A stretch of 64,000 nt of DNA from Magnolia sinica (Eukaryota > Streptophyta > Magnoliopsida > Magnoliales > Magnoliaceae), in assembly GCF_029962835.1 (NCBI RefSeq), contig NC_080586.1:70929001-70993000 (forward strand), read 5' to 3'. Positions within the stretch are counted from its first letter, which is position 1; each line of letters begins with the position of its first letter. The position numbers were made by a program, and so were the translations under genes. Shown piece after piece: positions 2,050 through 49,741 of this stretch. The notes beneath the pieces were generated by a model. That model was not told the DNA's origin and searched no databases. It worked only from the letters and a program-made list of their open reading frames with translations.

Positions 2050-2995
2050 TGAAGAGTTGATCCAAATGATTCTCCGTGGAATTCCTCTTGATGAACCGTA
2101 TTTGAAAGCTCACTTGTCAGCGCTAATGAAATGCAGAATTTGGAAATTCTAAATATGCACAAGTTGTTCTCAATATCATTGATTTTGGCACTTGATTTTC
2201 ACATGAATTGAGCGGGGCAAACTGAAAATTCAGCGGGGGAAACTTGCATTTGAGCGGGGCAAACATGAAGTTCAGCAGGGCAAACTGGAACTTGAGCGGG
2301 GCAAGCATGAAATTGAGCAATGCAAACTGGAAATTGAGCGGGGCAAACATGAAATTGAGCGGGGCAAACTGGAACTTGAGCGGGGCAAGCATGAAATTGA
2401 GCGGGGCAAACTGCAAATTCAGCGGGGCAAACATGAAATTCACCGGGGCAAGCATGAAATTGAGCGGGACAAACTAGGAATTGAGTGGGGCAAGCATGAA
2501 AATGAGCGGGACAAACTAGGAATTGAGCGGGGCAAACATGATATTCAAGATCTAGAGCAATTGCCAAGTATTGAGGTCCATGTGCATTGAATGATGCTTT
2601 GAATTATGCTCAAAATGTTCGTTCCAATAAGCACATTACGTTGCATTGAGATGTGTTATTGAAAGTGATTTAAATGCACATGCAATCGGCATAAGTTTCT
2701 ATCATCATAGATTTCTTAAAAATTTACATGTTCTGTATAAATCTAATGTAGTTTTTTCATATTGCTTCAACATGTTGTCATCCACTTGTTCCAGGTGAAT
2801 AACCTAAAAAGGTGTTCCTTGGGCAATTTGTTATTTTAAAACATATTTGTTCCATGCATTATTTCTCACTAAAATACAGAGAGAATGAGCAAATCTCGGG
2901 AGATATCCATGTTGTCGCTGCAACTTACATTGGGGATTTGGAGAATGTTGTTGAAAATTATAAATATGCTATTTTCTTTTCAAATTGATCTAGTT
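2050..2995 (+). pseudogene. RNA-dependent RNA polymerase-like fragments, copy 2, split by a minisatellite
   Basis: This is a second, rearranged copy of the same gene segment. Around 2068-2140 it reads MILRGIPLDEPYLKAHLSALM and then loses the frame. Around 2905-2990 it reads GDIHVVAATYIGDLENVVEN, then KYAIFF, then stops. The second block carries the residues that follow GLHFGDIHVV in the family, so it extends past the end of copy 1. The intron-like bases before it (TTATTTCTCACTAAAATACA) match those before exon 2 of copy 1 at about 1645. A 336-bp minisatellite array (2210-2545) sits where the rest of the first exon should be. It is not functional. Confidence 0.6.
2210..2545 (+). repeat. 21-bp minisatellite, array 1 (16 units, no indels)
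   Basis: Sixteen consecutive units of exactly 21 bases follow the pattern GAGCGGGGCAAACATGAAATT. The first unit starts at 2210 and the sixteenth at 2525, so the phase never slips. Many units alternate between an ACATGAAATT type and an ACTGGAACTT type, giving a partial 42-bp higher-order period. Because 21 is a multiple of three, several frames stay open and give artificial repeats of seven residues; these are not genes. Confidence 0.9.
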
Positions 2996-3190: not shown

Positions 3191-3651
3191 CTTGCCCCGC
3201 TCAATTTCATGCTTGCCCCGCTTAATTTCAGTTTGCCCCGCTCAATTCATGCTTGCCCAGCTGAATTTTATGTTTGCCCCGCTCAATTTCCAATTTGCCC
3301 CGCTCGATAAATTTCATGCAAGGATCGCTCAATTTAATGTTTGTCTAGCTTAATTTCATGGTAGATAATGTCAATTTAATGTTTGCCTCCATAAATTTCA
3401 TGCTAGGATTGCTTAATTTAATGTTTGCCTAGCTCAATATTATCCTATGCTTGCTCAATCTGCAGTTTGCCCATTCAATATTCATGCAATGGTCGCTCAA
3501 TTTAATGTTTGCCCCGCTCAATATCATGCTATGCTCGCTCGAAAAAATGTTTGCCCAACTCAATATTATGCTATGCTTGCTTGAAATATCGTTTGCCCAC
3601 ATCAATATCATGATATGCTCGCTCAATTTATCGTTTGCCCAACTCAATACC
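3191..3651 (-). repeat. 21-bp minisatellite, array 2 (inverted and degenerate)
   Basis: The same 21-bp unit appears here as its reverse complement (TTGCCCCGCTCAATTTCATG). It is more degenerate than array 1 and mixes in variants such as TATGCTCGCTCAATTTAATG. It is inverted relative to array 1 (2210-2545), with about 650 bases between them that hold the second RDR exon fragment. A transcript through both could fold into a long stem. Confidence 0.8.
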
Positions 3652-4342: not shown

Positions 4343-4464
4343 AAAAGGAGGGGTATTTTCATCCTGAAATTCGGTCTCCGCACATGCAGGTCTAAGTTGT
4401 AAAAGAAAGTATTTTCATCCTAAAAAGGAGGGGTATTTTCATCTTGAAAAGGAGGGGTATTTTC
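4343..4464 (+). repeat. Short repeats of an AAGGAGGGGTATTTTCATC unit
   Basis: The word AGGAGGGGTATTTTCATC occurs three times (about 4345, 4422 and 4450). The first copy continues into GAAATTCGGTCTCCGCAC and a TCTAAGTTGTAAAA tail. A diverged copy of that longer block (about 55 bases) lies at 6838-6893. GGGTATTTTCGTC-like words are common at plant Mutator-type termini, so this may be a MULE end, but no paired end was found. Confidence 0.5.
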
Positions 4465-5010
4465 ATGTTTGCCCCACTCAATTTCATGTTTGCCCCGCTG
4501 AATTTCTAGTTTGCCCCACTCAATTTCATGTTTGCCCCGCTCAATTTCTAGTTTGCCCCGCTCAATTTCTAGTTTGCTCCGCTGAAATTCGTGTTTGTCC
4601 CGCTCAATTTCTTGTATGCCCCATTGAAATTTATGTTTGCCCCGCTCAATTTCTAGTTTGCCCTGCTCAATTTCTAGTTTAGCCTGCTGAAATTCGTGTT
4701 TCCCCTGCTCAATTTCATGCTAGGATCGCTCAATTTAATGTTTGTCCAGCTTAATTTCATGGTAGATAAGGTTAATTAAATGTTTGCCTCAATAAATATA
4801 ATGCTAGGATCGCTGAATTTAATGTTTGGCTAACTCAATATTATCCTATGCTCGCTCAATTTACAGTTTGCCCATTCAATATCCATGCAATGCTTGCTCG
4901 ATTTAATGTTTGCTCCTATAAATTTCATGTTTGCCCTGCTCAATTTCCAGTTTGCCCCACTCATTTTCCAGGTTGCCCCGCTGAATTTCCAGTTTGCCCC
5001 GCTCATTTTA
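4465..5010 (-). repeat. 21-bp minisatellite, array 3
   Basis: This is the same 21-bp family in the orientation of array 2 (TTTGCCCCGCTCAATTTC type). The first part is well preserved, the middle degenerate (4715-4900), and the last 100 bases preserved again. Arrays 2 and 3 lie on either side of the MULE exon in the same orientation. Confidence 0.85.
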
Positions 5011-12563: not shown

Positions 12564-13220
12564 TCATATACATGCAGACGTAGAATCCACCACAGCAGCT
12601 ATCGCTCCACCTATTAAAGTCCTTTCGATCAACCTGTAAAGGTTTCCGTGCCTCTGAGTTCTCATAACCATGAGTGCCCCCTTTGTTACTTTAAAGACAC
12701 CATTGACGTCGGTGAACTTGCACTCTATTGCCTCGAGTGCACAGAGAGAAACCAAGTTCTTCATGTCAGGAACGTGCCTAACCTCAGTCAAGGTACGCTC
12801 CATCCCATCGAACATCTTGATGTGCCCACAGTCACAACCTTACAGGCATTTTCATTGCCCATAAAGACCTGTCCACCATCGCGTTTTTTGTAACTGTCGA
12901 ACCAACTCCGATGAGGAGTTATGTGATATGATGCTCCTGTGTTAAGGATCCACTCGTCTCTGCGATCATCATACAAATGTTCGATCATAGACACTGACAA
13001 CACATCACGTATGCTTGTCTCTTCATCAAACGTAGCAATGTTGGCCTCCATGAAAGAGGCCTCTAAGTTTTCTTTCTTCGCTTTAGGATTTGTGCAATCC
13101 TTCTTCATGTGTCTAGTCATCCCACAGTTCCAGCACTTTAATTTGCTTAGCCCTTGGATTTGGATCTAGACTTTTAAGATATTGTACATCGCTCAGTATT
13201 CTTGTCCTTTGTAAGTAGTG
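12564..13220 (-). pseudogene. Copia-1 gag zinc knuckle, protease and pre-integrase region
   Basis: On the minus strand a CCHC knuckle reads CWNCGMTRHMKKDC, about 13070-13130. The protease active site follows as WILNTGASYHITPHRSWF (12788-13120), with NTGAS where DSGAS or DTGAS is usual, so the catalytic Asp appears changed to Asn. The pre-integrase part (12564-12815) has VRHVPDMKNLVSL. The gag frame upstream is broken and then cut by the 61-bp repeat at 13220 and the Athila insertion. Confidence 0.75.
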
Positions 13221-13280
13221 CATCAGAAGAAGTCCTACACTACCGTTTTTCTTTCCCATAGCTTTCCCCTGAAGGGATGA
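13220..13280 (-). repeat. 61-bp direct repeat, left copy
   Basis: This 61-base stretch (GCATCAGAAGAAG to AAGGGATGA) belongs to the Copia-1 gag gene. It is repeated without a single difference at 24621-24681, immediately beyond the other end of the Athila-type element. It therefore acts as the flanking duplication of that insertion. Ty3/Gypsy insertions normally duplicate 5 bases. Confidence 0.95.
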
Positions 13281-15312
13281 AAAACTTGTTCACTCCCCAA
13301 GTATAGGGTTGTGATGTAGTAATAAACACGGTGAGACCGAGATCGAATCCCAAGGGACTGATACTTGTACGTTACCTGAAACTAGGTAGAAATAGAACTA
13401 GCCTAAGATGAAATCTAAATCCAATGAATTTGAGGGAATAATGGTGAAATACTAGGCTAAAACTTAATGAATTTAGAGAAAGAAAACTAGGGATTCAGAG
13501 GATCCACTTGTAGAGATCAGGGAGATCTTATGCCTGCATCAAAAATTATGGAATTTAAACTGAACTTCCGTTGATATAGTTATCAAGAGGTGAAAGGTAT
13601 ATGAATTAGAATGGATTCCATCACCAAACCATGCCCAGGAAACAAAGTTAACAACAGAATTAAACTAATCACCAACCAATCAACATGCTATGAAGGTTAG
13701 GAAGGGTACCATCATCCTACCATGCCCAGGAGACGATGGTGAACAACAGGGCTTCCTGACGTCATAAACATCAAAAGGGAAAAGGAAATATTTAAAGCCA
13801 TTGCAGACCCATTGTAATTTCAGTCACAACAGACCATTAAAGACTAAAAAAAGAAACATTCCTTTCATAATCAACTAAAAACAAATTCAGTTCATGAATT
13901 TACATTAAGAGCATAAAATAGAGTCTCTCATCTCGCTACAAGCTTCACCTCTTAGCCTTAGATAAGAGGTTTAGCCAATCACGGGCATGATTAGGCTGAA
14001 TTCAAAATAAACAAAGGAAGAAGAAGAAAAGAAAGAGAAAAACCAGGCCCAACCCAAGCCAGCCCACTTCTATCTCTGCCTCTCCTCACGTCCAGCTTCT
14101 CCTTGTCTTCACGTTCCAGCCGACCCCCAAGCTCTCCCGATCCCCCTCTGTTCTCTCTCTCTTCCTTCTTATAAGCCAAGGACCCCTGGAGAAAGAGTTC
14201 CGCACTCCTCTTTACGCCGGAACAGACGTCAGTTTCCTACATAAAAACCACACAAAGCAGCTGCGTATGGCCCGAGTTTGGGAGAAATATCCACCCGCTT
14301 CATTCATTTTGACTCCATAGGAAGGGTTGTGGTCCCCTTCTCCAACGTCTGGATGGTTTGGATCGAAGATCCAATCACGTTCTAGGCCACGCAATTCCAT
14401 GGAAAATATGAAATTTTCGGACGCGCGTAAAGCCTACGCGGACTTGCTGACGTGCTCGGTGGGCCCCGTAGTGATATTTTTAATGAAATCCACCCCGTCC
14501 ATCAGATTCCTCTCGATTTTTCGGTCGGAATGGACTAGTTTTTGTCGAGTTTTGGTGTGGTCCACATGATTTTCCATATTGCCGTTCAACCCGCATTTGA
14601 ACGGTATTCTCTTGTGTATGCGAGCATAGATTAGGACAAACCTCATGTGTACGGTCGGTTTGACCTTCTGAAACAAATGGACGGTCCAGATCATCCTGTT
14701 GGTGGCCCACACTGAGATGACGGACGAACAGTTCGTCCATCTGTTGTAAACAGAGGCGGACTCTGTTGCGTTGCGGGCGGAACTTGCGGTCAAATGCAAG
14801 TTTGACTTTTTCCTTTGCTCGGTGTACTGCGAGTGCACATCCCATGTGCACTCCCACGTACGCACGGTGGGTCCCAGCTTGATGTATATGTGAAATCCGA
14901 TCCGTCCATCTGTTGTCCTATCTCATTTAAACTGTCAAGACTAACTTTGAAGCATATCCCGATAACAGGTGGGTCCCATTTCACTGTTTTGGTAGGTGAT
15001 CTGTCAGTTGGGCCACTTTCACAGTGATCCAGGAGCTGAAATATGATGTGTACGGTTCATTTACGGTCCTCAGGGCACGTATGGAGTTTCAAGCCAATCT
15101 AATGGTGGGAACCCTGTGATCTTGCATTCTAGACGTCTTCTAGGCCTGTTTAAGATGAGTGGCTGAAATTTCTCTGATTTTTGGCTTGTAAATTCTTCAA
15201 GTTTGGTCCTCTGGAATCCGTCCTTTGCCTTTAGTGTCATCAGAGCGTTAAATCCATGCTTTAAGCTCCCTTTTCAGTCCATGCTCCTAAAGTCACCTTG
15301 CAACACAAAAAC
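13281..15312 (-). repeat. Athila-type 3' LTR
   Basis: This matches 22646-24620 over its full length with scattered substitutions and small indels. Its outer edge is CAAGTTTTT (minus strand) and its inner edge GTTTTTGTGTTGC. Open frames of 60-145 codons inside it are chance frames that recur only because the LTR is duplicated. Confidence 0.9.
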
Positions 15313-16781
15313 GATTAAAATAGTTTGTTAAATAGCATCATGTTCATAAATGCAGGCAATAACTGGGTCTAATATGTAATATTTGACCCTCAACACAACC
15401 CTTAACCAGCATTTTGCTAGTCCCGAGCAAAGCATGCCAAAAATAAGTTGAGAGTTATAGGACAATCTCTAAAAACTTGACTGATTTTATTTATTTTTTT
15501 ATTTTTTTATTTTTTTAAACAATCAAGATACTAGAAGTCTAAGATTCATGAATGTTGGATTTTACATTCCCTATACTTAAGCAATCTGTAGATTTCATAA
15601 CCAAGATCAAAGAATTAATCCAACAATCAGAAAATTCTAAACATTGAGTTCTATGGGTGTATCGTGTAATCTCGACTTATCATTAAGGTTCACTTCTTAA
15701 TTTCATGATATTATCGGTAAACACCAAGATAATTCATAATAACTAAAACTTTCCTCACGGATCATCTTTTCATTAATCGACCTTTGATATATATATTTTT
15801 TTCATTAAAATACCGCCAAGGAAAGGAATCAAATCTTCACCTATAGGGAGCAAACCTATGATGAAGACCATTGCCCATCCCTTTTCGACGGCTACTTTGA
15901 GAAATTGAACCTTCACCTATAGGGAGCAAACCTATGGTGAAGATTATTCACCCAATCCTTTCAATTTTCTCAGGCTGGTTCCTTTCATGCTTAGTGAGTA
16001 CCAAGTAAATCCTTCAATATCAAACTGAAACCTTAATGTGAAAGCGAGATGTGACATGTGAGATCATAACTCAATCAATGTTTACAACTTCTAATTCTGG
16101 ATTAACAATTCAAACTTAATTATGCAATCCAACAGATACTGAATCCAAGCGTCTTAAATTTCCAACATCATGTATCTTGAAATTCCAAGTGCCCTAGATG
16201 GCTGTCAAAATCCCTTCGAATTCACAAGAAAGTCCAGAAAAATTAAAAATTTTCACAATTTTTGTTCAAGACCAAGAAAATGCTGATTAGGTCACCTAAT
16301 CTCCCACCCCCAACCTAAAATCTACATTGTCCTCAATGTAAAAGATATGAGCATGCAATGCACTTGGGACAACGAAAAGTAAATATGAAGTGATGGGAAG
16401 ATAGTACCTGGATGATGAATCGAGAGACACTTTCCAAGAGATTGCGGCGTCGGTCAGTATGAGAGAGAAGGTAACACAAAAATAACAAAAATACAATCCT
16501 ACCTATATCACTTTCGTAAGTGCTCTCGATTGCATTTAGCGTATGCAACAAGCCTTTAAACCCCTAGGTTGCCCCTAGTGGACGAGTTGTAGTCTCGTGA
16601 GGGTTTGTAGTAATGTTACCCACAAACATTGAACTAACTAACTAGGAAAATGAAACAGAAAGAAAAGCTGGAGTTGCCTCTAAGGAGCGCTAAGTTTACC
16701 GTCTTCAGCCAGACAAATAAAGCAACTACCCTAGTCCTATGAAAGCGATAAACCTACCTATACCTCCATCAGACTAGGAGA
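15313..16781 (-). other. Non-coding spacer between integrase and 3' LTR
   Basis: In Athila elements this position often holds an env-like gene. Here I see no long frame, signal peptide or membrane segment. A 35-base block (CACCTATAGGGAGCAAACC) occurs twice, at about 15840 and 15912. A T/A-rich run lies at 15487-15517. Confidence 0.6.
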
Positions 16782-17747
16782 TCAATCCTGGTAAACAGGA
16801 GCAGTCAGGGGCATGGACATGTCCTCTGAATCAAATTTCTCGACAAATGGTTTCAATCGATGTCCATTGACTTTAAACTCCTTGCCGTTGTCAGGATCTC
16901 TTATCTCAACGGCCTCATAGGAAAAAATAGTAACAACAATGTAAGGGCCGGTCCAACGAGATCGAAGCTTACCCGGAAAGAGATGTAATCGAGAATTGTA
17001 CAAAAGGACCTTCTGACCAGGCGTGAATGATTTTCGCAAAATGTGTTGGTCATGAAATGCTTTCATCTTATCCTTGTAAATTCTCGAATTATCGTACGCA
17101 TCATTCCGGATTTCCTCAAGTTCATTCAATTGAAGTTTGCGTAGCGAGCCAGCGTTGTCCAGATTGAAATTAAGATTTTTGATCGCCCAGTACGCTTTAT
17201 GTTCCAGCTCCACAGGCAAGTGACAAGCTTTCCCATAGACAAGTCTAAAGGGAGACATTCCAATAGGGGTTTTAAAGGCAGTACGGTATGCCCATAAGGC
17301 ATCGGTCAATCGGATTGACCAATCCTTACGATTAGGGTTAACCGTTTTCTCCAAAATGTGTTTAATTTCCCTATTAGAAATCTCAGCTTGCCCACTTGTC
17401 TGTGGGTGGTACGGGGTGCTCACCCTATGAGAGATACCGTATTTCTTCATTAAGCTCTCAAATGGTTTATTACAAAAGTGTGAGCCCCCATCACTAATGA
17501 TGGCTCGAGGCGTTCCGAATCGAGAAAGGATGTTTTCTTTTAGGAATTTAATGACCGTGCGATGGTCATTAGTTCGACACGGAATCGCTTCGACCCATTT
17601 AGTGACATAATCCACGGCGAGCAAAATATACAGATTTCCAAACGATTGGGGGAATGGTCCCATGAAATCGATGCCCCAGCAATCAAATGCTTCAATGATA
17701 AAGATGAGATTCAAAGGCATCATATTTCGACGGGACAATGCTCCCAA
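16782..17747 (-). CDS. Athila-type integrase (largest intact frame of the element)
   Basis: A 321-residue frame is open from 17747 to 16782. Catalytic landmarks are [12 protein letters not shown] (first Asp), [14 protein letters not shown] (second Asp) and [20 protein letters not shown] (Glu), so the DDE triad is complete. After it come [22 protein letters not shown] and the C-terminal [21 protein letters not shown] and RSRWTGPY motifs (GPY/F module). No chromodomain follows. The frame is cut off from RT by frameshifts near 17750-18750, where the HHCC zinc finger should be. The start is simply the first ATG after a stop, so the real polyprotein would begin far upstream. The enzyme acts on element cDNA in the nucleus; it probably is not expressed today. 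Confidence 0.85.
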
Positions 17748-17749
17748 TT

Positions 17750-18748
17750 TCTAACAACGCTCACAAGCTTTGCAAAACTCATGAGTGTCCCTAAACATAG
17801 TGGGCCAGTAAAAGCCACACTGCAGAATCTTGGCCGTGGTCTTTTTAGCGAAAAAGTGACCACCACAGGCCTGTGAGTGACAGAAGGAGATGCGCCCGAT
17901 GCTCATCGTCTGGTACACATCTCCTTAGGATTTGGTCCGCAATATTTAAATAAATAAGGATCATCCGAGAAAAAGTTACACACCTCGGTGAAGAATTTTT
18001 CTTATCTTCTGCAATCCACTATGTCGGTATGGCACTGTAGCAAGATAATTAGCAATATCAGAACCAAGGTGAATGGGAGACTCGAATAGTTGTTCATCGG
18101 GGAACATGTCGTTGATATGGGTCGTCTCAAGGGAATCGAGGTATTAAGGCGAGAAAGGTGATCGGCCACAACGTTTTCTACTCCCTTTTTATCTTTAATT
18201 TCTAAATCAAATTCTTGGAATAGAAGAATCCATCGTATCAGCGGGGCTTAGAATCATTCTTAGAAAGAAGATACTTGTGCGCTGATTCGTATAGATAATG
18301 ATCTTGGATCCAATCGGTAGGACCTAAATTTGTCCAAGGCGAACACTACGACTAAGAGTTCTTTTCCGTAGTTGAGTAGTTTACTTGGGTCGGATTTAAA
18401 GTCCTACTCGCGTAATGGGTGACGTAGGGCTTCTTGTCTTTTTTTCTGGCCTAGGACTGCCCCAAGAGCATAGTCAGACGCGTCGCACATAAGTTCAAAA
18501 GGAAGGCTCCAGTCGAGTGGCTGCATGATAGGTGTAGTGGTTAACATGCCCTTAAGCTTAGTAAAAGCTTCCTGGCATTGCTCAGTCCACTCATATGGTG
18601 CATCCTTCTGAAGTAGATTATATAAAGGATGAGAGAGGAGACTAAAGTCCTTTATGAATCTTTTTTAAAAACCGGCGTGTCCTAAGAAGGATCGCACATC
18701 TCGTATGTTCTTGGGTGGAGGTAGGTTAGAGATAAGATCAATTTTTAT
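17750..18748 (-). pseudogene. Athila-type RNase H and integrase zinc-finger region (frameshifted)
   Basis: Reading the minus strand across frames gives LLCDASDYALGAVLGQ, a KPYVTHYASRTLNP-like run, YSTTEKELLVVVFALDKFRSYLL and [11 protein letters not shown]. These are the standard Ty3/Gypsy RNase H landmarks. Several single-base frameshifts and stops break it. The region leading into integrase is also out of frame. Confidence 0.7.
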
Positions 18749-18749
18749 C

Positions 18750-20378
18750 TTATCTACCTCGATTCCTTTGGATGAGATGATATATATATATATATATATA
18801 TATATGTCTAAGGACAATTCCCTTACGAACCATGAAATGACACTTCTCCCAATTGAGTACCAAATTCTTTTCTTCACATCTTTTCAGCACACATGTAAGA
18901 TTCTTTAAGCAATCGCTGAAAGATGGATCGAAGACAGAGAAATCGTCCATGAAGACCTCTAAATATTGCCCCACCATATCAGAAAAGATACTAAGCATAC
19001 ATCGCTGAAAGGTGGCAGGGGCATTACATAGTTCGAATAGCATCCTTCGGTAGGCAAAGGTGCCGTAGGGACATGTAAATGTGGTCTTTTCCTGGTCTTC
19101 AGGGGCTATCTCTATCTGGTTGTAGCCCGAATACCCGTCAAGGAAACTGTAATAAGAATGACCAGCTAACATTTTCAGGATCTGATCAATGAATGGTAAA
19201 GGAAAGTGGTCTTTCCTTATAACGGTATTCAACTTCCTGTAGTCAATGCACATTCTCCAACCAGTAGTGACTCTAGTTGGCACGAGTTCATTATTAGCAT
19301 TGGCTACGATGGTGATTCCGGACTTCTTAGGGACCACTTGAGTTGGACTCACCCATTGACTATCAGATATAGGGTATATGATACCCACGTCCAATAGTTT
19401 AAGAACCTCGGCCTTAACCACTTTCTTCATGTTTGGATTTAGTCGACGTTGTGGTTGCCGAGTGGTTTTTGCATTATCCTCAAGATATATGCGGTGAGTA
19501 CAAATCGAGGGATCGATTCTCTTGAGGTCCGCTATTGTCCATCTCAGAGCTCCTTTATGCTCAATGAGAGTAGATATGAGCATACTCTCCTGTCCTTTCT
19601 CCAGGTGGGCAGAGATCACCACCGGGTATGTCTCATCTTGACCTAAATAGGCATATTTCAAATCAGATGGCAAAGGTTTTAGGTCAAGCTTCGGCGGCTT
19701 GAGGTTAGACGGTAGAGACATTACATTAGTTTGTGGCAATTCCTCAAATTGTGGCCTCCACCGGTTAACTTCAAGTATTGGTGCAGTATCAAGCAAGGCA
19801 CACGTCTCCCTAATCATGTCATCATCAAAATCATGGGAGTGGGCCAGGCACGTCTCTAGAGAGTCAGAGGATAAGGTTAGAGGTGTCGTATCTTCCACTA
19901 AAGAGTCAATCATGTTAATGTCGTGGAAATCGTCATCCTCCTCTAAGTTTCTGCCGTTATTGAAAAAGATGTTTGACTCCAATGTCATATTCCCAAAAGA
20001 CATAGTCATGACACCATTCCTGCAATTGATAATTGCATTTGAAGTGGCAAGGACTGGGCGGCCTGGCATGACGGGGCTCTGAGTGCTTATGTTATTGATG
20101 GGTTCGGTGTCCAGGATGATAAAATCTACAGGGTAGTAAAATTTATCAACTTGGACCAACACATCCTCAATTATCCCTCTTGGTACACGAACAGAGCGAT
20201 CAGCAAGTTGCAGTGTAGTTAGGGTGGGTTTTAATTCACCCAAACCTAATTGTTTGTATACCGCGTAGGGAATCAGATTGACGCTCGCTCCTAAGTCAAG
20301 AAGTGCATGATCAATTCGATGGTCCCCGATTACACATGATATGGTTGGGCTACCGGGATCCTTGAATTTCTGTGGCAC
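18750..20378 (-). CDS. Athila-type protease and reverse transcriptase (truncated by a TA repeat)
   Basis: The frame is 542 residues long. The protease active site reads HALLDLGASVNLIP (DLGAS is usual for this lineage) near residue 31. RT begins about residue 290, with WVSPTQVVPKKSG, then WRMCIDYRKLN and DHFPLPFIDQIL. Next come SYYSFLDGYSGYNQI and FAYRRMLFELCNAPATFQRCM, and the catalytic YLEVFMDDFSVF (FMDD). After GIVLRH the frame runs into an Ile-Tyr repeat from the (TA)n tract at 18780-18804. The lost continuation ISSKGIEVDKIKIDL is visible in another frame just after it. Protease would mature the polyprotein and RT would make cDNA; the frame break removes RNase H from this frame. Confidence 0.85.
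   Translation of the reverse strand: MPQKFKDPGSPTISCVIGDHRIDHALLDLGASVNLIPYAVYKQLGLGELKPTLTTLQLADRSVRVPRGIIEDVLVQVDKFYYPVDFIILDTEPINNISTQSPVMPGRPVLATSNAIINCRNGVMTMSFGNMTLESNIFFNNGRNLEEDDDFHDINMIDSLVEDTTPLTLSSDSLETCLAHSHDFDDDMIRETCALLDTAPILEVNRWRPQFEELPQTNVMSLPSNLKPPKLDLKPLPSDLKYAYLGQDETYPVVISAHLEKGQESMLISTLIEHKGALRWTIADLKRIDPSICTHRIYLEDNAKTTRQPQRRLNPNMKKVVKAEVLKLLDVGIIYPISDSQWVSPTQVVPKKSGITIVANANNELVPTRVTTGWRMCIDYRKLNTVIRKDHFPLPFIDQILKMLAGHSYYSFLDGYSGYNQIEIAPEDQEKTTFTCPYGTFAYRRMLFELCNAPATFQRCMLSIFSDMVGQYLEVFMDDFSVFDPSFSDCLKNLTCVLKRCEEKNLVLNWEKCHFMVRKGIVLRHIYIYIYIYHLIQRNRGR
18780..18805. repeat. (TA)n microsatellite inside the RT gene
   Basis: About 13 TA dinucleotides lie exactly between codons for GIVLRH and the expected ISSKGIEVD continuation. 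Related elements have no repeat at this point, as far as the family pattern shows. The tract shifts the frame. Confidence 0.9.
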
Positions 20379-20381
20379 GTC

Positions 20382-21907
20382 TTACTTTAGGATGGCACTC
20401 ACTTTCTCGGTCAAGAAGATCTTCTTTTGAATACTCTGCCGTCGTTTGGTCGTGCATAAGTCTTTCAGGAATTTGGCATATGAAGGTATCTGTTTCACGA
20501 CATCAAGTAGAGGAATGTTGACTTTCACTTGTTTCAACACCTCTAGGATATCCTGAGAGTTAGAGAGAGGTTTTGGTGAAACCAACCGTTGGGGGAACGG
20601 AGCAACTGGCTTCTCTAGAAGTTCCGGTTCTAATTTTTGTGGGGCATCACTAGATCCATCATTGTTGTCCTCTTCTGGTTCTTGAGGCTTTTCGGGCCTA
20701 ACCGGAAGAGTTTTATCAATGATCTTTCCACTCCTAAGAGTGGTGATGGATTTAGCGTGCCCCATCTGATTTGAAGAGCTGGGATCATTAATCTCGTACT
20801 GCGGTTTAGGATTGGGGAGAGGTTGTGCAGGAAGCATCCCCTTTTCTATAACCGTCATATGAGAATCTATCTTTTGCATAAAATTTGTAATTCTCCGCAT
20901 TGCCTGAGCCAGTTCTTGTATGAAATTTTGAACCGGTTCCTCTTAAGGTTTTACTTGATTTGGATTTTGATTGAAGAAACCTTGAGGGGTAGCCGTTTGT
21001 CCATTTCTCCAACTAAAGTTTGGATGATTTTTCCAACTAGGATTGTACGTATTGGAGTTAGGTCCAATAAAAGGTCTTTGATAGTTGTTTACGGCATTGG
21101 CTTGTTCATTTAACACTCCTCGAAAGGCGGGTATTGTAGGATAATTTTTAGTTGTATGGATGTTGCAATCACAGATGCCGTAAACAATTTCATTAACCTT
21201 ATCCTTCTTTCCTTCCATGGCCTCAACTTTCCTTATGAGCGTGTCACTTTATACTTGAGATCATCCTCTTCTTTCAAGAGATATAATCTACCTTTCTCCT
21301 TTAATTGAGTCGGCCTAGATGTGGTGTTCGCCATTGGGTAATAGTCCCATGATTGTGTTTTTTCAGCAAGACTATCGAGATAATCCCATACCTCGTCAAC
21401 ATCTTTATTAATGAAATCTCCATTACACATTGTCTCAACCATTTGGCGCATGGAAGATGTCAGTCCATCATAGAAAAAAATTGTAATGCGCCACATTTCA
21501 AATCCATGTTGTGGGCATGAACTGACCAAATCTTTGAACCTTTCCCAACATTGGAAGAATGTTTTATCTTCCTTTTGGGCAAAGTTCATGATTGCTTTTC
21601 GAGGGTAATCGTTTTATGATGTGGGAATAATTTTTTTATGAATTCCCTCCGCATGTCGTTCCATGTGCCAATGGATGGAGGACGTAGTAAATGTAACCAC
21701 GTCTTAGCTTTCTCTTTTAAGGAAAAAGGAAAGAGTTTCACTGATTGTATCCTCGGATACATTAGGAAAATATGATGTGGCTATAATCTCATCGAACTCT
21801 TTCAAATGTAAATATGGACTTTCTGATTCAAGTCCATGGAATTTGGGAAGGAGTTGAATAACTCCTGGGTTGATGTCCATTTGTCCTGTGTTTTCAGGAA
21901 AAATCAT
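20382..21907 (-). pseudogene. Athila-type gag (frameshifted)
   Basis: The capsid part begins near 21907 with MDINPGVIQLLPKFHGLESE and LHLKEFDEIIATSY. It continues in another frame with ERFKDLVSSCPQHGFEMWRI and FYDGLTSSMRQMVETMCNGDF, landmarks of Athila gag. A degenerate cysteine/histidine part (20943-21218) has ICDCNIHTTKNYP, where a CCHC knuckle is expected but not complete. The linker 20382-20900 has SITTLRSGKIIDK and then the KVNIPLLDVVKQIPSYAKFL stretch that leads into protease. Stops and shifts separate the pieces. Confidence 0.8.
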
Positions 21908-22627
21908 GCATGAGGCATACTCACTCCCGCCGGTTGTAGATAATCTCGTAAAGTACGAGGCGGGGGTGCCTGTTGCACCTCATTCTCATCTTGGGTATCC
22001 TTGAAACACTTGCAGCCCTCAATCAAATTCGAACAAAAAGAAAATCTAGAAAGAAAGAGAGAGTTGGAAAGAAATTACCAACTTGAAGTCCCTAAGTTAA
22101 AGACCTGCAAAAGAAAACAAACAAGTCAGTTTCTAAAAGAAGAAAAGTCTAAACTAGAAAGTAAATTACTAAAAGAGATATGAAAAATAGAAAGAGAGAG
22201 AGAAAGAACTTACCGAATTAGAGAGTTTCTAAAAATGAAGGAAAGATGAGTTAGTTTCTAAAATTAGAAAGAATCTCTAAAGAGGGAAATAACTAACCTA
22301 GTTTCTAGAAACAAAAGAGGAAAGTTTCTAAAAATAAACTAGTTCCTAAAAATAGAAAAATACTAGAAAATAGAAAATTTCTAAAATTAAAAGAAAGCTT
22401 AGAATAAGAAAATTTCTAAAACTCAAACAATAATTCTAAAAATAGAAAAAGTAGAGGAATTAGAAAGGGATTACCAATTTAGAAGTTATTTCAGGATCCT
22501 ACAAAACAGGAAAACAGGTTAGTTTCTAAAAATAAAATAAAATAAAAACATTTAACCTAAAGTTAGTAAAATCCTAATCTTAACCTAATTCTAAAACTAA
22601 TTAATTTCAGAAAAACATAGCCGTCAA
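21908..22627 (-). other. Athila-type 5' leader
   Basis: Between the primer site and gag lies A/G-rich DNA with repeated TTTCTAAAA-type words (TAGAAA on the plus strand). No open frame of interest was seen. Such leaders carry packaging signals in retroelements; none can be named here. Confidence 0.6.
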
Positions 22628-22645
22628 TCCCCGGCAACGGCGCCA
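22628..22645 (-). promoter_or_regulatory. Primer-binding site for tRNA-Asp
   Basis: On the minus strand TGGCGCCGTTGCCGGGGA lies directly after the 5' LTR. It is the exact complement of the 3' end of plant tRNA-Asp including CCA. The 18-base match supports the 5' LTR boundary and the Athila assignment. Confidence 0.9.
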
Positions 22646-24620
22646 AAAACTTGTTCACTCCCCAAGTATAGGGTTGTGATGTAGTAATAAACTCGGTGAG
22701 ACCGAGGTCGAATCCCAAGGGACTGATACCTGTACGTTATCTGAAACTAAGTAGAAGGAGAACCAGATTAAGATGAAATCTAAATCGAATGATTTTTGAG
22801 GAATAATAGTGAAATACTAAGCTAAAACTTAATGAATTTAGAGGAAGGAAACTAGGGATTCGGATGATCCACTTGTAGAGATCGGGAGATCTTATGCCTA
22901 CATCAGAAACTCAAATTTAACTGAACTTACTTGATCCGGTTTTCAAGAGATGAAAGGTATATGAATTATAATGGATTCCATCACCAAACTATGCCCTGGA
23001 GACAATGGCTAACAACAGAATTAAACTAATCACCAACCAATCAACATGCTATGAAGGTTAGGAAGGGTACCATCATCCTATCATGCCTCGGAGACGATGG
23101 TGAACAATAGGGCTTCCCGACGTCATAACATCATAAGGGAAAATGAAATATTCAAAGCCATTGCAGAACCATTGTAATTTCACCACAACAGACCATTAAA
23201 GACTAGAAAAACATTCCTTTCATAATCAACTAAAAAAACAAATTCTTCATGAATTTATATTAAAAGCATAAAATAGAGTCTCCCATCTCGCTACAGCTTT
23301 CACCTCTTAGCCCTAGCCTTAGGAGTCATCAGGAAAAAAAGAAAAACAAAACAACAGCAAAGAAAAATAAGGAAAAGAAAATAAGGAACAGAAAAGAATT
23401 CCCTTTTCTCTCCCTGTCTTCACGTTCCAGCCGACCCCCAAGCTCTCCCGATCCCCCTCTGTTCTCTCTCTCTTCCTTCTTATAAGCCAAGTACCCCTGG
23501 AGAAAGAGTTCTGCACTCCTCTTTACGCCGGAACAGACGTCAGTTTCATGCATAAAAATCGCACAAAGCAGCTGCGTATGGCCCGAGTTTGGGGAAAATA
23601 TCCGCCCGCTTCATTCATTCTGACTCCATAGGAAGGGTTGTGGTCCCCTTCTCCAACGTCTGGACGGTTTGGATCAAAGATCAGATCACGTTCTGGGCCA
23701 CGCAATTCCACGGAAAATCTGAAATTTCCGGACACGCGTAAAGCATACGCGGACTTGCTGACGTGCTCGGTGGGCCCCGTAGTGATATTTTTAATGAAAT
23801 CTATCCCGTCCAGATTCCTCTCGATTTTTCGGTCGGAATGGACTAGTTTTTGTCGAGTTTTGGTGTGGTCCATATGATTTTCCATATTGCCGTTCATCCT
23901 GCGTTTGAACGGTATTCTCCTGTGTATGCGAGCATAGATCAGGACAAACCTCATGTGTACGGTCGGTTTGACCTTCTGAAACAAATGGACGGTCCAGATC
24001 ATCCTGTTGGTGGCCCACACTGAGATGACAGACGGACAGTTCGTCCGTCCGTTGTAAACAAAGGCGGACTCTGTTGCGTTGCGGGCGAAACTTGTGGTCA
24101 AACGCAAGTTTGACTTTTTCCCTTGCTTGGTGCACTGCGAGTGCACATCCCATGTACACTCCCACGTACGCACGGTGGGTCCCAGCTTGATGTATATGTG
24201 AAATCCGATCCGTCCATCTGTTGTCCCATCTCATTTAAACCGTCAAGACTAACTTTGAAGCATATCCCGATAACAGGTGGGTCCCATTTCACTGTTTTGG
24301 TGGCTGATCTGTTAGTTGGGAGACTTTCACAGTGATCCAGGAGTTGAAATTTGATGTGTACGGTTCATTTATGGTCCTTAGGGTACGTATGGAGTTTCAA
24401 GCTGATCTAATGGTGGGAACCCTGTGATCTTGCATTCTAGACATCTTCTAGGCCTGTTTAAGATGAGTGGCTAGAATTTCTCTGATTTCTAGCTTGTAAA
24501 TTCTTCAAGCTTGGTCCTCTGGAGTCCGTCCTTTGCCTTCAGTGTCATCAGAGCGTTAAATCCATGCTTTAAGCTCCCTTTTCAGTCCATGCTCCTAAAG
24601 TCACCTTGCAACACAAAAAC
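22646..24620 (-). repeat. Athila-type 5' LTR
   Basis: This is the partner of 13281-15312. It is slightly shorter. The two copies differ by many substitutions, for example around 22740-22930 against 13375-13560. The outer edge adjoins the right 61-bp repeat. Confidence 0.9.
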
Positions 24621-24681
24621 GCATCAGAAGAAGTCCTACACTACCGTTTTTCTTTCCCATAGCTTTCCCCTGAAGGGATGA
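24621..24681 (-). repeat. 61-bp direct repeat, right copy
   Basis: This is identical to 13220-13280. It codes for part of Copia-1 gag (KAMGKKNGSVGLLLM). Removing one copy together with the Athila element restores a continuous Copia-1 gag region, which shows that this was the insertion site. Confidence 0.95.
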
Positions 24682-25240
24682 GATAACAGTGTCCACACTC
24701 AGGGATGATTTACAGGTGCACAATGAGTCCTTGAATGGCTTATACGAAGCCGGAAGAGAATTCAACAAAATACATATCTGATCTTTATCTTTAACCACTT
24801 CCTTCATATCCAGTAACTTGCAAATCAACTTATTAAAACTACTGATGTGGGCCTCCACATCTCCACCTTCTACCATCTTAAAGTTGAACAACTACAACTT
24901 TAAGTGTAGGCGATCTTAAGGGACTTTTTAGCATAAAAGTCTTCTAACTTCACACACAAACTTGCTATGGTTTTCTCCCTCAAAACATTGTAGAAAACCT
25001 CATCTATGAGACACAATCGGATACAGGATAAGGCATTCTTATCAAATGTATTCCAATCATCATCACTCATAGATAGTCGACGTTCCTCAAGAGCCCCATT
25101 TTCGCCTTGCTTAGTTAATAGGCTAATCATCTTAACATTCCATAACTCAAAATTATTTTTTCTTGAGTACCTCTTAACATCATACTTAGTGTTTCCCATT
25201 GATACTAATTTTTCAGATTCAAGCCTACGCCCCAACGTTA

Positions 25241-25252
25241 GCTCTGATACCA
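25241..25252 (-). promoter_or_regulatory. Copia-1 primer-binding site (tRNA-iMet type)
   Basis: TGGTATCAGAGC on the minus strand is the standard Copia primer site. It lies two bases inside the LTR end at 25255. Confidence 0.9.
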
Positions 25253-25254
25253 CT

Positions 25255-25527
25255 TGTTGGCAGACTACGGAAGCACATAGAGGCGGATCTATGATGGCAA
25301 CCTAACGGGACCAAGCGAAAAGGAGAAGCATACAAATATTTTAACATGGAAAAACCCTTGAGGGAAAAAACCACAGCATAAAGCGACAGATGAACACTAT
25401 GAAAGCAAAATTACAAAGATAAAGAGCTTACCCGATTCAAACAACCTCGAATCTCACCCTTTGAGCCCCTTGGATGAATTCGAAAACCTCTAGGAATATA
25501 TTATAATCCTGTTTACACACACACACA
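25255..25527 (-). repeat. Copia-1 5' LTR
   Basis: About 273 bp, minus strand, beginning TGTGTGTG at 25527 and ending CCAACA at 25255. It is matched in reverse orientation by 25579-25856. Confidence 0.8.
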
Positions 25528-25578
25528 CAGAGCCTTGGGAAGAATCCCAAACGGAAAAGGAAACTAGGAATAATCGCA

Positions 25579-25856
25579 TGTGTAAATAGGATTAGAAAAA
25601 AATTCTTAGGGGTTTTCGAATTCATCTAAGGGGCTCAAAGGGTGTAGCAAGGGTGAGATTCAAGGTTGTTCGAATCGGGTAAGCTCTTTCTCTTTGTAAT
25701 TTTTCTTTCATAGTGTTCATCTGTCGCTTTGTGCCATGGTTTTTTTCCTGCAAGGGTTTTTCTACGTTAAAATCTTTGTATACTTCTCCATTTTGTTTGG
25801 TCTCATTGTGTTGCCATCCTAAATCAGCCTCTATATGCTTTCGCGACCCCCCAACA
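25579..25856 (+). repeat. Second Copia-1-type LTR in inverted orientation
   Basis: About 278 bp from TGTGTAAATAGG to CCCCAACA, the reverse complement of 25255-25527 with scattered differences. For instance GATGAATTCGAAAACC in one arm faces GGTTTTCGAATTCATC in the other. The two LTRs stand head to head with about 51 bases between. No primer site or coding region follows this LTR on the plus strand, so it is a solo or rearranged LTR. Confidence 0.8.
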
Positions 25857-26012
25857 AAAGGAAAATACAACCTAAATCAAAATGCGAACTTAATTAAAAA
25901 GCCCTAAATCATTGCAATTGTAACCATTCAATCATCCCCTTTGTTCGATCGAAATTACCAAAAACATGAAAAAACTATGTAACTAAGGTAAGAGTGAGAG
26001 GAAGACAAAAAG

Positions 26013-30789: not shown

Positions 30790-31681
30790 AGCTCTTCGTT
30801 ACTCTTGAACAAGCGACAATCATGACACACGTGCGTGCTGGCACCCGTGTCGATCCACCACACTATTCCACATGGACCGTATTAATATTTATAACTACAA
30901 CCATAATTTAAGGTTCTTCAGTTAGGTTTGCTTGAGGCACGGGAGCATTTTTCTTACAATGATGACACTCTCACAAAGTGTTAAGACTTTCCCCAAACAT
31001 AGCAACTTGCTGATTTATCTTAGTTACCGGATTTTATTTTTTATTTTTTTGCTTCTTTTTTAACTAAGGTTTTTGGTTTGAATTTCGATTATTGGGCTTA
31101 TGAAATGCTTGATTTTGATTCTTATGGTTTACCATATACACTTTAGGAGCTTCTTCCTTCTCGTCTTCATTCTTTTCCCACGGTCTAACTTCCTCTTAGA
31201 TCTGCATATGCATAATGAGTTGTTACATTGATAACTCCTTAATTTTATACCTAAGAAAAAGATTTAAATTTTTTTCAAGAATGCTATAATTTTTCAATAA
31301 TTGCTCCCACTTGGAAAAGCTCGCATATCTTGATTCCCTAAAACAAAATTTTATGCGCAACACATTTACATGTTACATGACTGACTTTTCATCTTCCATC
31401 TGGAATTTGAAATATCTGTTGATTGCATACTTTTTTACGCCATCCCTTTGGTTTTGTATTTTTTCTCTAGGACATTTCATATGTCGACGGAAGTGGCAGA
31501 ATCATGGAAAACATTGTATAATTGATTCAACATCACGCTAAGAATGTAGTTTTTGTAGAGGTAGTAATCCTCATCTCACTTTCCGTAGGCAGCTGCCAAT
31601 TCTTGTAGAATTTTAGACTTCAGCTGACTCAAGATATACACCACTCTAAAAGTTGTGAGGTAGAACCGTAGAAGTGCATCT
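30790..31681 (-). pseudogene. Copia gag and protease remnant (host of Copia-2)
   Basis: On the minus strand the capsid part reads QLKSKILQELAAAYGK and NQLYNVFHDSATSVDIWNV-like, then LEKKYKTKGMA, the usual UBN2-type Copia gag. Near 30950 is a CHHCKKNAP knuckle half, and near 30830-30860 the protease site WWIDTGASTHVCHDCRLF. Many stops are present. The start of this gene continues beyond the Copia-2 insertion at 36609. Confidence 0.7.
31677..31681. repeat. Copia-2 target-site duplication, left (CATCT)
   Basis: CATCT here and at 36609-36613 flank the LTRs exactly. Five bases is the normal Copia duplication, which confirms both outer ends. Confidence 0.9.
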
Positions 31682-32469
31682 TGCTGGGGGCTATTGCACA
31701 AAACCTTATGATCTAGCCTCCCAAATAACACCAGAATTATGGGATAATAAATCAATGAAATAAATCAAAGCACAAACCACACGACATAAAAGATTTTTAT
31801 GTGGAAAACCCTCAAAGAGGTAAAAAACCACGGGACCTAGTCCAGAGCAACAATCCACTATGAAGTAGAACGTTACAACCGATCACAAGCACACACAGCT
31901 TGGATCAAACCTTCTTCACTCACACAGGAGTGGATGAAGAATAAGAGAATAATGAAAAATGGAGAGATCACACCGATTACGAGGATGTAGAAGCATTGAG
32001 ACATTGACTGCGAAGTAGATCACCTCTACGAGCAAAACCTCCCTTCCACAAACTTCTTCTTTCTCTTTTTCTCTTTCTCACACCCTTTGATAGCCCTAAA
32101 CCCTTTAGCAAATCTTTGTAAAGCTTTAGGAAACTCTCTTGCATTGCCCTAGAATAGCCCTAGGACCCCTATTTATAGTTTATAAAACTCCCTTCCGCAC
32201 CTCTTGCGAAACCGCCTCAAATTTACGCAGTTCACACCAAATCCAGACTAGAATCTGCATAACCTCGACTAGTTGAGTAGGGTCCTCGACTGGTCGAGCC
32301 GACCCTCGACTGGTCCAACAAACTCCTCGATTGATCGAGCAGTGCAGAAGAATTAACACAATTAGTCGCTTGACTTTGAGTCGAGCCAAGCCTCGACCGG
32401 TCGAGTACCACCCTTGACCGGTCGAGCGAGGCACTCAACTGGTCGAGCCTGAGGAGAAAATTCCCATCA
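31682..32469 (-). repeat. Copia-2 3' LTR
   Basis: It matches 35858-36608 closely but is about 37 bases longer. The upstream third holds a cluster of CTCGACTGGTCGAG-type palindromic words (32260-32450). The other LTR has fewer of them, which explains the length difference. Confidence 0.92.
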
Positions 32470-35559: not shown

Positions 35560-35857
35560 GGTGTCCTGCTCGTAGCCGTGAAACAAATATCAGAAAAAAT
35601 TTATTATCGGTTGTCTTCTTCTCATACAGCCCTTACAGTGTCATCCATAGGCTAGCGGATGAGGTCTCTGTAGACACATGGTGAAATATAAAATCGTCCA
35701 GCCATTATCCAATAAACCCCACAAGTAAGTTCTCCATCTTAGCCTTCTATATGGTCCAATTAGAACCATGGAGACTGATCATGCTTGATGAGCCACCTTC
35801 CATAATTCAGAACCGATCCCACTCTATTCAACCAACCTGAACTCTTTGATACCACTT
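35560..35857 (-). pseudogene. Copia-2 gag remnant (internally deleted) and primer site
   Basis: Minus-strand DNA just inside the 5' LTR has the primer site (35842-35854). It then reads MEGGSSSMISLHGSNWTI, a stop, and KAMENLLVGFIG-like codons of a gag start. A short piece like LYEKKTTDNKFFL follows and leads straight to the protease. The capsid and zinc-knuckle parts, normally about 200 codons, are missing. This implies that any late transposition needed gag in trans. Confidence 0.65.
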
Positions 35858-36608
35858 TGTTGAGGGTCGTTGCACAAAACCTTAGGATCTAGCCTCCCAA
35901 ATAACACCAGAATTATGGGATAATAAAGCAATGAAATAAATCAAATCACAAACCACATGACATAAGAGATTTTTATGTGGAAAACCCTCAAAAAGGTAAA
36001 AAACCACGGAACCTAGTCCAAAGCAACAATCCACTATGAAGTAAAACGTTACAACCGATCACAAGCACACACCGCTTGGATCAAACCTTCTTCACTCACA
36101 CAGGAGTGGATGAACAATAAGAGAATAATGAAAAATGGAGAGATCTCACCGATTACGAGGACGTAGAAGCGCTCAGACGTCGACTGCGAAGTAGATTACC
36201 TCTACGAGCAGAACCTCCCTGCCACAAGCTTCATCTCTCTCTTTTTCTCTTTCTCTCACCCTTTGATAGCCCTAAACTTTTTAGCAAACCCTTGTAAAGC
36301 TTTAGGAAACCCTCTTGCATTGACCTAGAATAACCGTAAGACCTTTATTTATAGTTTAAACAACTCCCTTCCGCACCTCTTGCGAAACTGCCTCAAATTT
36401 ACGTAATCCGCATCAAATCCAGACTAAAATCTACGTAACCTTGATTAGTCGAGCAAGGTTCTTGACCGGTCAAGGCGACAAACTCCTCGACTGGTTAAGC
36501 AAAGCAGAAAAATTAACACAATCGGTCGCTGGACTTTGATTTGAGTCAGGCCTCGACTGGTCGAACACCATCTTCGACCGGTCAAGCTTGAGGAAAAAAT
36601 CTCCATCA
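35858..36608 (-). repeat. Copia-2 5' LTR
   Basis: The LTR of 751 bp carries the same 5' and 3' ends as 31682-32469. It is followed outward by the CATCT target duplication at 36609-36613. Confidence 0.92.
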
Positions 36609-49507: not shown

Positions 49508-49653
49508 CAGCTCCAATTCATCTAATAATTTCTTGTTTTGACACATAATCTACCCCATCCAGCTCCAATTCATCTAATAATTTCTTGTTTTGACACATAA
49601 TCTACCCCATCCAGCTCCAATTCATCTAATAATTTCTTGTTTTGACACATAAT
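49508..49653 (+). repeat. 52-bp tandem repeat, 2.8 units
   Basis: Unit CAGCTCCAATTCATCTAATA plus 32 bases starts at 49508, 49560 and 49612. The copies are nearly identical, so the expansion is recent. Confidence 0.95.
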
Positions 49654-49741
49654 CTATTGATCATGCCCCATCGTTTAGATGGTGGAGAAACCATGAGGCA
49701 TACAAATTGATTGTTTTTATTTTTTTTTCACATTAGCTAAG

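What the first reader, a model, noticed from the sequence alone, without database searches (positions are those of the whole stretch)
13220..24681. Diverged Athila element flanked by a perfect 61-bp direct repeat
Seen: bases 13220-13280 and 24621-24681 are identical and flank the element exactly. Ty3/Gypsy integrase makes about 5 bp. The two LTRs are well diverged (about one difference in ten over the first 290 bases aligned by eye), yet 61 bases of flank show none. If the repeat dated from an ordinary insertion it should carry several changes. Inference: the element arrived as ready-made DNA during break repair (staggered nicks filled in around a copied donor), more recently than the LTRs diverged, or the flanks were homogenised by gene conversion. 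Paired nicks are known to give tandem duplications in plants.
Basis: partly seen in the sequence, partly recalled or inferred. Interest (0 to 1): 0.75.

Follow-up and report, generated by a model that had tools for sequence, protein, structure and literature searches.

The report
Retrotransposon DNA captured in broken chromosome
An incomplete DNA copy of a plant jumping gene, with two end repeats of mixed ancestry, appears to have been pasted into a broken chromosome by DNA repair instead of by its own integration enzyme, leaving a 61-letter duplication and showing why end-repeat differences can mislead as a clock.

Summary
The 61-bp perfect repeat is real. It lies in a Ty1/copia element; 5 of 5 sibling copies fetched have the uninterrupted site, so it is a target-site duplication. 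The inserted Ty3/gypsy (Athila-like) DNA lacks normal ends: the left (U5) end keeps the 6-nt LTR-to-PBS spacer, as an untrimmed cDNA would; the right (U3) end lacks 82 bp. Of 13 relatives with both ends read, 9 have a perfect 5-bp duplication and none keeps the spacer. A break-repair origin is well supported. No donor was found: among places scored, the two U3 segments are each other's closest relatives and both chimeric junctions occur only here. Best reading: an incomplete cDNA, recombinant through inter-RNA strand transfer, was end-joined into a roughly 61-nt staggered break. Against it, a tree test does not reject sister R-U5 regions, and one copy keeps the spacer beside a 5-bp duplication. 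New variant of a known kind.

The parts
13220..13280 (.). left copy of the 61-bp target duplication (copia sequence between the gag and Pol_BBD matches)
24621..24681 (.). right copy of the 61-bp target duplication, contiguous with copia gag to the right
   Evidence: (39 of 39 other scored places begin at query 56-75, i.e. window 24615-24634)
13281..13286 (-). retained LTR-PBS spacer AAAACT at the U5 end (untrimmed cDNA end)
   Evidence: the same 6 nt lie between the 5' LTR and the PBS at 22646-22651
13287..15395 (-). 3' LTR (left copy), full length; R-U5 of subfamily A up to about 14096, then B/C-type U3
14096..14098 (.). A/B recombination junction of the 3' LTR, with about 7 nt of microhomology to the closest A row L013 (read by eye)
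15396..22628 (-). internal region, degenerate, gag-PR-RT-RH-INT order (integrase 16785-17750, RH 18407-18664, PR/RT 18753-20381, gag 21236-21613)
22629..22645 (-). primer-binding site (reads TGGCGCCGTTGCCGGGG on the minus strand)
   Evidence: tRNA-Asp assignment recalled
22652..24620 (-). 5' LTR (right copy), lacking the first 82 bp of U3; A/B switch at about 23314-23317
12791..13165 (-). host Ty1/copia pol (Pol_BBD), left of the insert
24903..25301 (-). host Ty1/copia gag (weak Retrotran_gag_2 match, below Pfam cut-off), right of the insert

Best explanation
A linear but incomplete reverse-transcription product of a Ty3/gypsy (Athila-like) element was joined by end-joining into a staggered break, with about 61 nt between the two nicks, in a resident copia element. 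Filling in the overhangs gave the 61-bp repeats. Shown: the U5 end keeps the spacer, the U3 end is 82 bp short, the empty site is intact in siblings, a block of R (about 13960-14097) has different ancestry in the two LTRs, and their U3 segments are closest relatives among the places scored. Inferred: two different RNAs shared a particle; first-strand transfer put the R-U5 of one RNA on the 3' LTR while the 5' LTR kept the R-U5 of the other; synthesis of the 5' LTR stopped short, so integrase had no proper U3 end and repair enzymes used the cDNA instead. U3 differences (5.2%) then accumulated after insertion; 61 unchanged bases are mildly lucky.
For: Repeat and ends. Empty site in 5 of 5 copia siblings fetched; the 61 bp, alike in both copies, differs from all five at shared positions (one base fewer, one T for A). 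Normal family ends: 9 of 13 with a perfect 5-bp TSD, 2 more with 4 of 5, 0 of 13 with the spacer. Spacer kept without a recognisable PBS: 9 of 4709 exact U5 ends, this locus included, by a strict pattern. LTR mosaics: A to B switch at 14096/14098 in the left LTR and at 23314-23317 in the right; neither combination seen elsewhere among the 40 places scored per search. U3 nearest neighbours. R-U5 9.7% against U3 5.2%, Fisher P = 0.0003. At 19 differing sites of R-U5 each variant is present in at least 17% of 35 other family rows.
Against: The tree test on R-U5 (13287-13962) does not reject the two LTRs as sisters (p-AU 0.69 careful, 0.70 quick; the free searches had missed a better tree, by about 12 log units, with them together), so different R-U5 ancestry rests on the 13960-14097 block, the excess divergence and the shared-variant sites. 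One other copy (L062) keeps the spacer yet has a 5-bp CATAA duplication, so an untrimmed U5 end alone does not exclude integrase. Of 3 other spacer-keeping copies with both ends read, none has a long duplication. 0 of 61 remains mildly unexpected. A transcription start near 14140 is only guessed from a TATA-like site at 14169. One A-type pair (L027/L028) shares about 16 bp with B just past the left junction, so homology-driven recombination there is not excluded.
Confidence: 0.52

Rival explanations
1. The insert was copied from an existing genomic copy or tandem array (or a circular form) during break repair, carrying LTRs that had already diverged. A slice of an LTR-internal-LTR-internal array would also end in LTR plus spacer.
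For: Tandem arrays exist in this genome (L054 and L066 run on past a further LTR into more internal sequence). It explains diverged LTRs beside identical flanks and a truncated LTR end.
Against: No donor among the places scored: the U3 copies are each other's best match and both LTR junctions were seen only here (40 places scored each out of 2592, 7532 and 2460 candidates). The left end stops within 0-1 nt of the PBS boundary, the expected cDNA end, which a random slice would hit only by chance. The clock argument that motivated it is weak.
Confidence: 0.2
2. An ordinary integrase insertion with a 5-bp duplication was altered later: repair at the right junction replaced the U3 end with 56 bp copied from an unoccupied allele or sister, and ectopic conversion by a subfamily-A element changed the left LTR including the spacer.
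For: It explains a young 61-bp copy and A-type R-U5 on one side only. Resident A-type 5' LTRs carry the spacer. One A-type pair (L027/L028) shares about 16 bp with B just past the junction, which could seed recombination.
Against: Needs two independent events, each ending at a junction. Four A rows compared there are only 42-44% identical to our LTR at 14122-14208, so long homology is lacking. The conversion would have to stop exactly at the PBS boundary.
Confidence: 0.2
3. Assembly artefact or chimeric join at one or both junctions.
For: No reads were available; ends of this family are abundant (4709 exact U5 ends).
Against: The locus lies in an 82.6-Mb contig; both junctions join to the same interrupted copia element in consistent order and orientation; a mis-join would not be expected to make an exact duplication of local sequence with private variants.
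Confidence: 0.05

Closest known systems
Integrase-independent retrotransposition of LTR elements (Tf1 in fission yeast; Li et al. 2022, known here only through passages of the review PMC12786077)
   Same: cDNA enters the genome without the integrase reaction
   Different: per the review, Tf1 events go mostly into sequences homologous to the element (PBS, PPT, resident copies) through Rad52; here the target is an unrelated copia element and carries a 61-bp duplication
Template-switch complex LTR elements of Triticeae (Sabot and Schulman 2007, PMC1950507, part 1 of 2 of the text read)
   Same: inter-RNA template switching in reverse transcription makes composite elements with flanking duplications
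   Different: those have three LTRs, highly similar outer LTRs and 5-bp duplications; here two LTRs differ from each other and the duplication is 61 bp
Inter-molecular strand transfer and U3/R breakpoints in HIV-1 recombinants (Cappy et al. 2017, PMC5651808, abstract and part 1 of the Discussion read)
   Same: breakpoints near the U3/R border; a model of intermolecular second-strand transfer
   Different: retroviral population data with normal integration; here a plant element whose cDNA end is incomplete
Repair of paired single-strand nicks giving tandem duplications in plants (Schiml et al. 2016, recalled, not read)
   Same: overhang fill-in of tens of bp as source of a direct repeat
   Different: here a retrotransposon cDNA lies between the two copies

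Membership tests
Ty3/gypsy LTR retrotransposon | gag-PR-RT-RH-INT order between LTRs, with a tRNA-type PBS | tested here: met
   (gag and protease matches below the Pfam cut-off; frames interrupted)
Athila lineage | lineage-specific RT clade or Athila ORF | tested here: inconclusive
   ORF pieces scanned gave no Athila-named Pfam match; the RT search listed relatives without lineage names, those named being plant; the name rests on PBS type and size, recalled
canonical integrase insertion | about 5-bp target duplication | tested here: not met
   61 bp; family norm 5 bp, perfect in 9 of 13
canonical integrase insertion | both ends trimmed to the LTR termini | tested here: not met
   spacer kept at left, 82 bp of LTR missing at right
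integrase-independent cDNA insertion | an end at the PBS boundary expected of untrimmed cDNA | tested here: met
   left end equals the spacer boundary within 0-1 nt; not exclusive, since L062 has it with a 5-bp duplication
integrase-independent cDNA insertion | insertion occurs without integrase activity | not testable with these tools
   needs experiment
copy of a resident donor by break repair | a donor with the same LTR differences elsewhere in the genome | tested here: inconclusive
   none seen, but only 40 places were scored per search, so absence is not proven

The most novel reading that the evidence does not exclude
A single heterozygous particle produced a cDNA whose two LTRs differed from birth in R-U5 but not in U3, and host end-joining placed this unfinished cDNA into a break with a roughly 61-nt stagger. 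If general, a minority of plant LTR elements have LTR pairs that were never identical, and their LTR ages are wrong by construction; spacer-retaining ends would be a searchable footprint of such cDNA capture.
Probability: 0.33. Interest if true: 0.6.

Novelty: new variant of a known kind. Interest (0 to 1): 0.42.

Why it matters
LTR divergence is the standard clock for plant retrotransposons and assumes that both LTRs were identical at insertion. This locus gives a concrete way to see when that fails (U3 closest relatives, part of R-U5 not) and a sequence footprint, the untrimmed LTR-PBS spacer without a PBS, by which break-captured retrotransposon cDNA could be counted genome-wide. It is also a natural example of a long target duplication at an LTR-element insertion in a plant, at a non-homologous site.

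Tried and rejected
A second case at C1:19527700-19530700 (L013/L041) first looked parallel: spacer kept and a 108-bp direct repeat at 94%. In the wider view the right copy lies inside what looks like one continuous LTR, in a heavily rearranged Athila-like cluster, so it was dropped as a target duplication.

The 17 spacer-pattern places, judged by eye: 8 are 5' LTRs beside a mutated PBS (L055, L056, L058, L059, L060, L067, L069, L070); 9 are not (L054, L057, L061, L062, L063, L064, L065 = this locus, L066, L068). Six of the 8 others were followed outward: L054 and L066 run on as tandem arrays with the far end not reached; L063 far LTR not found; L061 normal U3 end, no duplication seen; L062 5-bp CATAA duplication with the spacer kept; L068 keeps the spacer and a PPT remnant, no long repeat. 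L057 (palindrome) and L064 (rearranged) were not followed. The pattern asks for no C in the two bases before the spacer, so it misses some.

The 13 relatives of the duplication control are those with both outer ends in view (solo LTRs L012, L015, L024, L031, L032, L035; pairs L010/L011, L016/L017, L018/L025, L019/L037, L020/L021, L027/L028, L050/L051), read by eye. Rows with only one end in view were dropped, among them L013 and L038, whose U5 end is preceded by the spacer (L038 perhaps beside a diverged PBS).

The R-U5 sister test did not reject sisterhood; reported as evidence against. The RT protein search gave no lineage name. Paper searches (listings only, apart from the papers named) showed no title or abstract that I recognised as a plant LTR element with a long duplication plus an untrimmed end. 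The Tf1 paper PMC11042837 is not held.

The species was not identified. Absolute age was not computed, since no rate was tested.
Full report
What is there. The window lies in a 1.84-Gb genome in 127 contigs (contig C14). Bases 13220-13280 and 24621-24681 are identical and border 11,340 bp of Ty3/gypsy DNA on the minus strand. Pieces of gag, protease, RT, RNase H and integrase occur in the gypsy order; the gag and protease matches are below the Pfam cut-off. The flanks are one Ty1/copia element on the minus strand, with pol pieces to the left and a weak gag match to the right; the 61 bp lie between the two. A search with the right junction and flank scored 40 of 4502 candidate places; the 39 others all begin at query 56-75, around 24621, and none shares the LTR-copia join. 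Five siblings were fetched and all five run uninterrupted through the site with one copy of the 61 bp. Our two copies share states that all five siblings lack (one base fewer, one T for A). So the repeat is a duplication of the local target, not an import from one of these siblings.

The ends. In this family an integrated LTR runs (window view) from TGTTCAC to CAACA. Between the 5' LTR and the PBS lie six bases, AAAACT, as at 22646-22651. In a search with the left LTR end, 23 of the 39 other scored places begin at query 61, one at 62 and 15 at 67-68. These are the two classes expected: PBS side and outer end. Of 13 relatives whose two outer ends could be read, 9 have a perfect 5-bp duplication, 2 have 4 of 5, and 2 have none in register (L015, with a 4-bp overlap, and L027/L028); none of the 13 keeps the spacer (duplications read by eye; rows with one end in view were left out, among them L013 and L038, which have the spacer). 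At our locus the left end keeps exactly AAAACT and then meets the 61 bp; the right LTR stops 82 bp before the U3 terminus. In LTR-element reverse transcription (general knowledge) the minus strand starts at the tRNA, so the untrimmed U5 end of a cDNA includes this spacer, and the U3 end of the 5' LTR is made last.

How unusual. Exact U5 ends number 4709 in the genome. A strict pattern for the spacer without PBS-like bases found 17; 8 are beside a mutated PBS and 9 are not, ours included. Of the eight others, both ends were read in three; none has a long duplication, and one (L062) has a 5-bp duplication with the spacer kept. So an untrimmed U5 end can occur with an integrase-like footprint; the case here rests on the spacer, the 82-bp loss and the 61-bp duplication together.

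The LTRs. Both are mosaics. The left LTR follows subfamily A to 14096 and, from 14098, subfamily B, with 100% identity over 133 bp to one LTR of the C11 element. Of 36 A-type rows in that search, 31 end at query 154-175 and 5 run on to 208-247 at 81-93% identity; one of these pairs (L027/L028) shares about 16 bp with B just past the junction. The right LTR switches at about 23314-23317, equivalent to about 13960 in the left copy. The block between is A-type on one side and B-type on the other. A second change at about 14880, from B to another U3 type, is shared by both LTRs. In that U3 segment the two LTRs are each other's best match at 95%; the next full-length match is 90%, and one partial match is 92% over 297 bp. 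In the B segment 14110-14880, 9 sites unite our two LTRs against the C11 pair, while 19 and 16 are private to the right and left copy. R-U5 differs at 9.7% and U3 at 5.2% (Fisher P = 0.0003). In R-U5, 19 differing sites carry variants that each occur in at least 17% of 35 family rows. Against this, a tree test on R-U5 does not reject the two LTRs as sisters (p-AU 0.69, and the constrained tree was better than the free one).

Dating. With 5.2% divergence, zero changes in 61 bp has P = 0.039, or 0.067 after allowing for cytosine context (60 of 62 differences have C or G in one copy). Of 61-column windows in the U3 alignment 72 of 1151 have no difference, and perfect runs of 60-89 bp occur. The identity of the flanks is therefore weak evidence for a recent arrival. 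The 9% figure should not be used as an age, because part of it is mosaic ancestry.

Mechanism. The single explanation that covers the three oddities is an unfinished cDNA. First-strand transfer between two packaged RNAs would give the 3' LTR the R-U5 of one RNA; if the minus strand then read on through the still intact R-U5 of the other RNA, the 5' LTR would keep that one, with U3 the same in both. An intermolecular second transfer, proposed for HIV-1 (PMC5651808, abstract and part 1 of the Discussion read), might do likewise. Synthesis that stopped 82 bp short would leave no proper U3 end for integrase, and end-joining into a break with a 61-nt stagger gives the duplication. The junction facts are shown; the particle, the order of transfers and the repair pathway are inferred.

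Known kinds. Integrase-independent entry of Tf1 cDNA, mostly into homologous sites, is described in PMC12786077 (passages). Tandem plant LTR elements, some with 4-5-bp duplications, are in PMC11899658 (passages), and template-switch composites in PMC1950507 (part 1 read). I did not recognise this combination in the listings of searches. I call it a new variant of a known kind.

Noticed in passing
L062 (C11:37238306), L088: Copy keeping the spacer at U5 yet flanked by a 5-bp CATAA duplication: possible integrase insertion with one untrimmed end.
   Followed up: partly
L057 (C6:18982884): Two LTRs head to head in a palindrome of about 3 kb (96%), joined at U5 ends that both keep the spacer, as if two cDNA ends had been ligated.
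   Followed up: no
L068/L082 (C16:5717785): Copy keeping the spacer at one end and a PPT-like remnant at the other, lying inside an inverted relative.
   Followed up: partly
L013/L041 (C1:19527700-19530700): Spacer-keeping LTR next to a 108-bp direct repeat (94%) in a rearranged cluster of related elements.
   Followed up: partly
L054/L077 and L066/L081: LTR-internal-LTR-internal tandem arrays whose U5 end in view keeps the spacer without a PBS.
   Followed up: partly
window 2206-2545, 3191-3649, 4461-5009: Arrays of a 21-bp unit (with GCCCCGCTCAA) in opposite orientations within about 3 kb.
   Followed up: no
window 31681-31980 and 35857-36156: Direct repeats, 94% over 300 bp, 4.2 kb apart, perhaps LTRs of another element.
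   Followed up: no
window 25254-25857: Inverted repeats (arms 112-117 bp, 79-89%) close to the right flank of the insertion.
   Followed up: no
window 49508-49656: 52-bp unit repeated 2.9 times at 100% matches.
   Followed up: no
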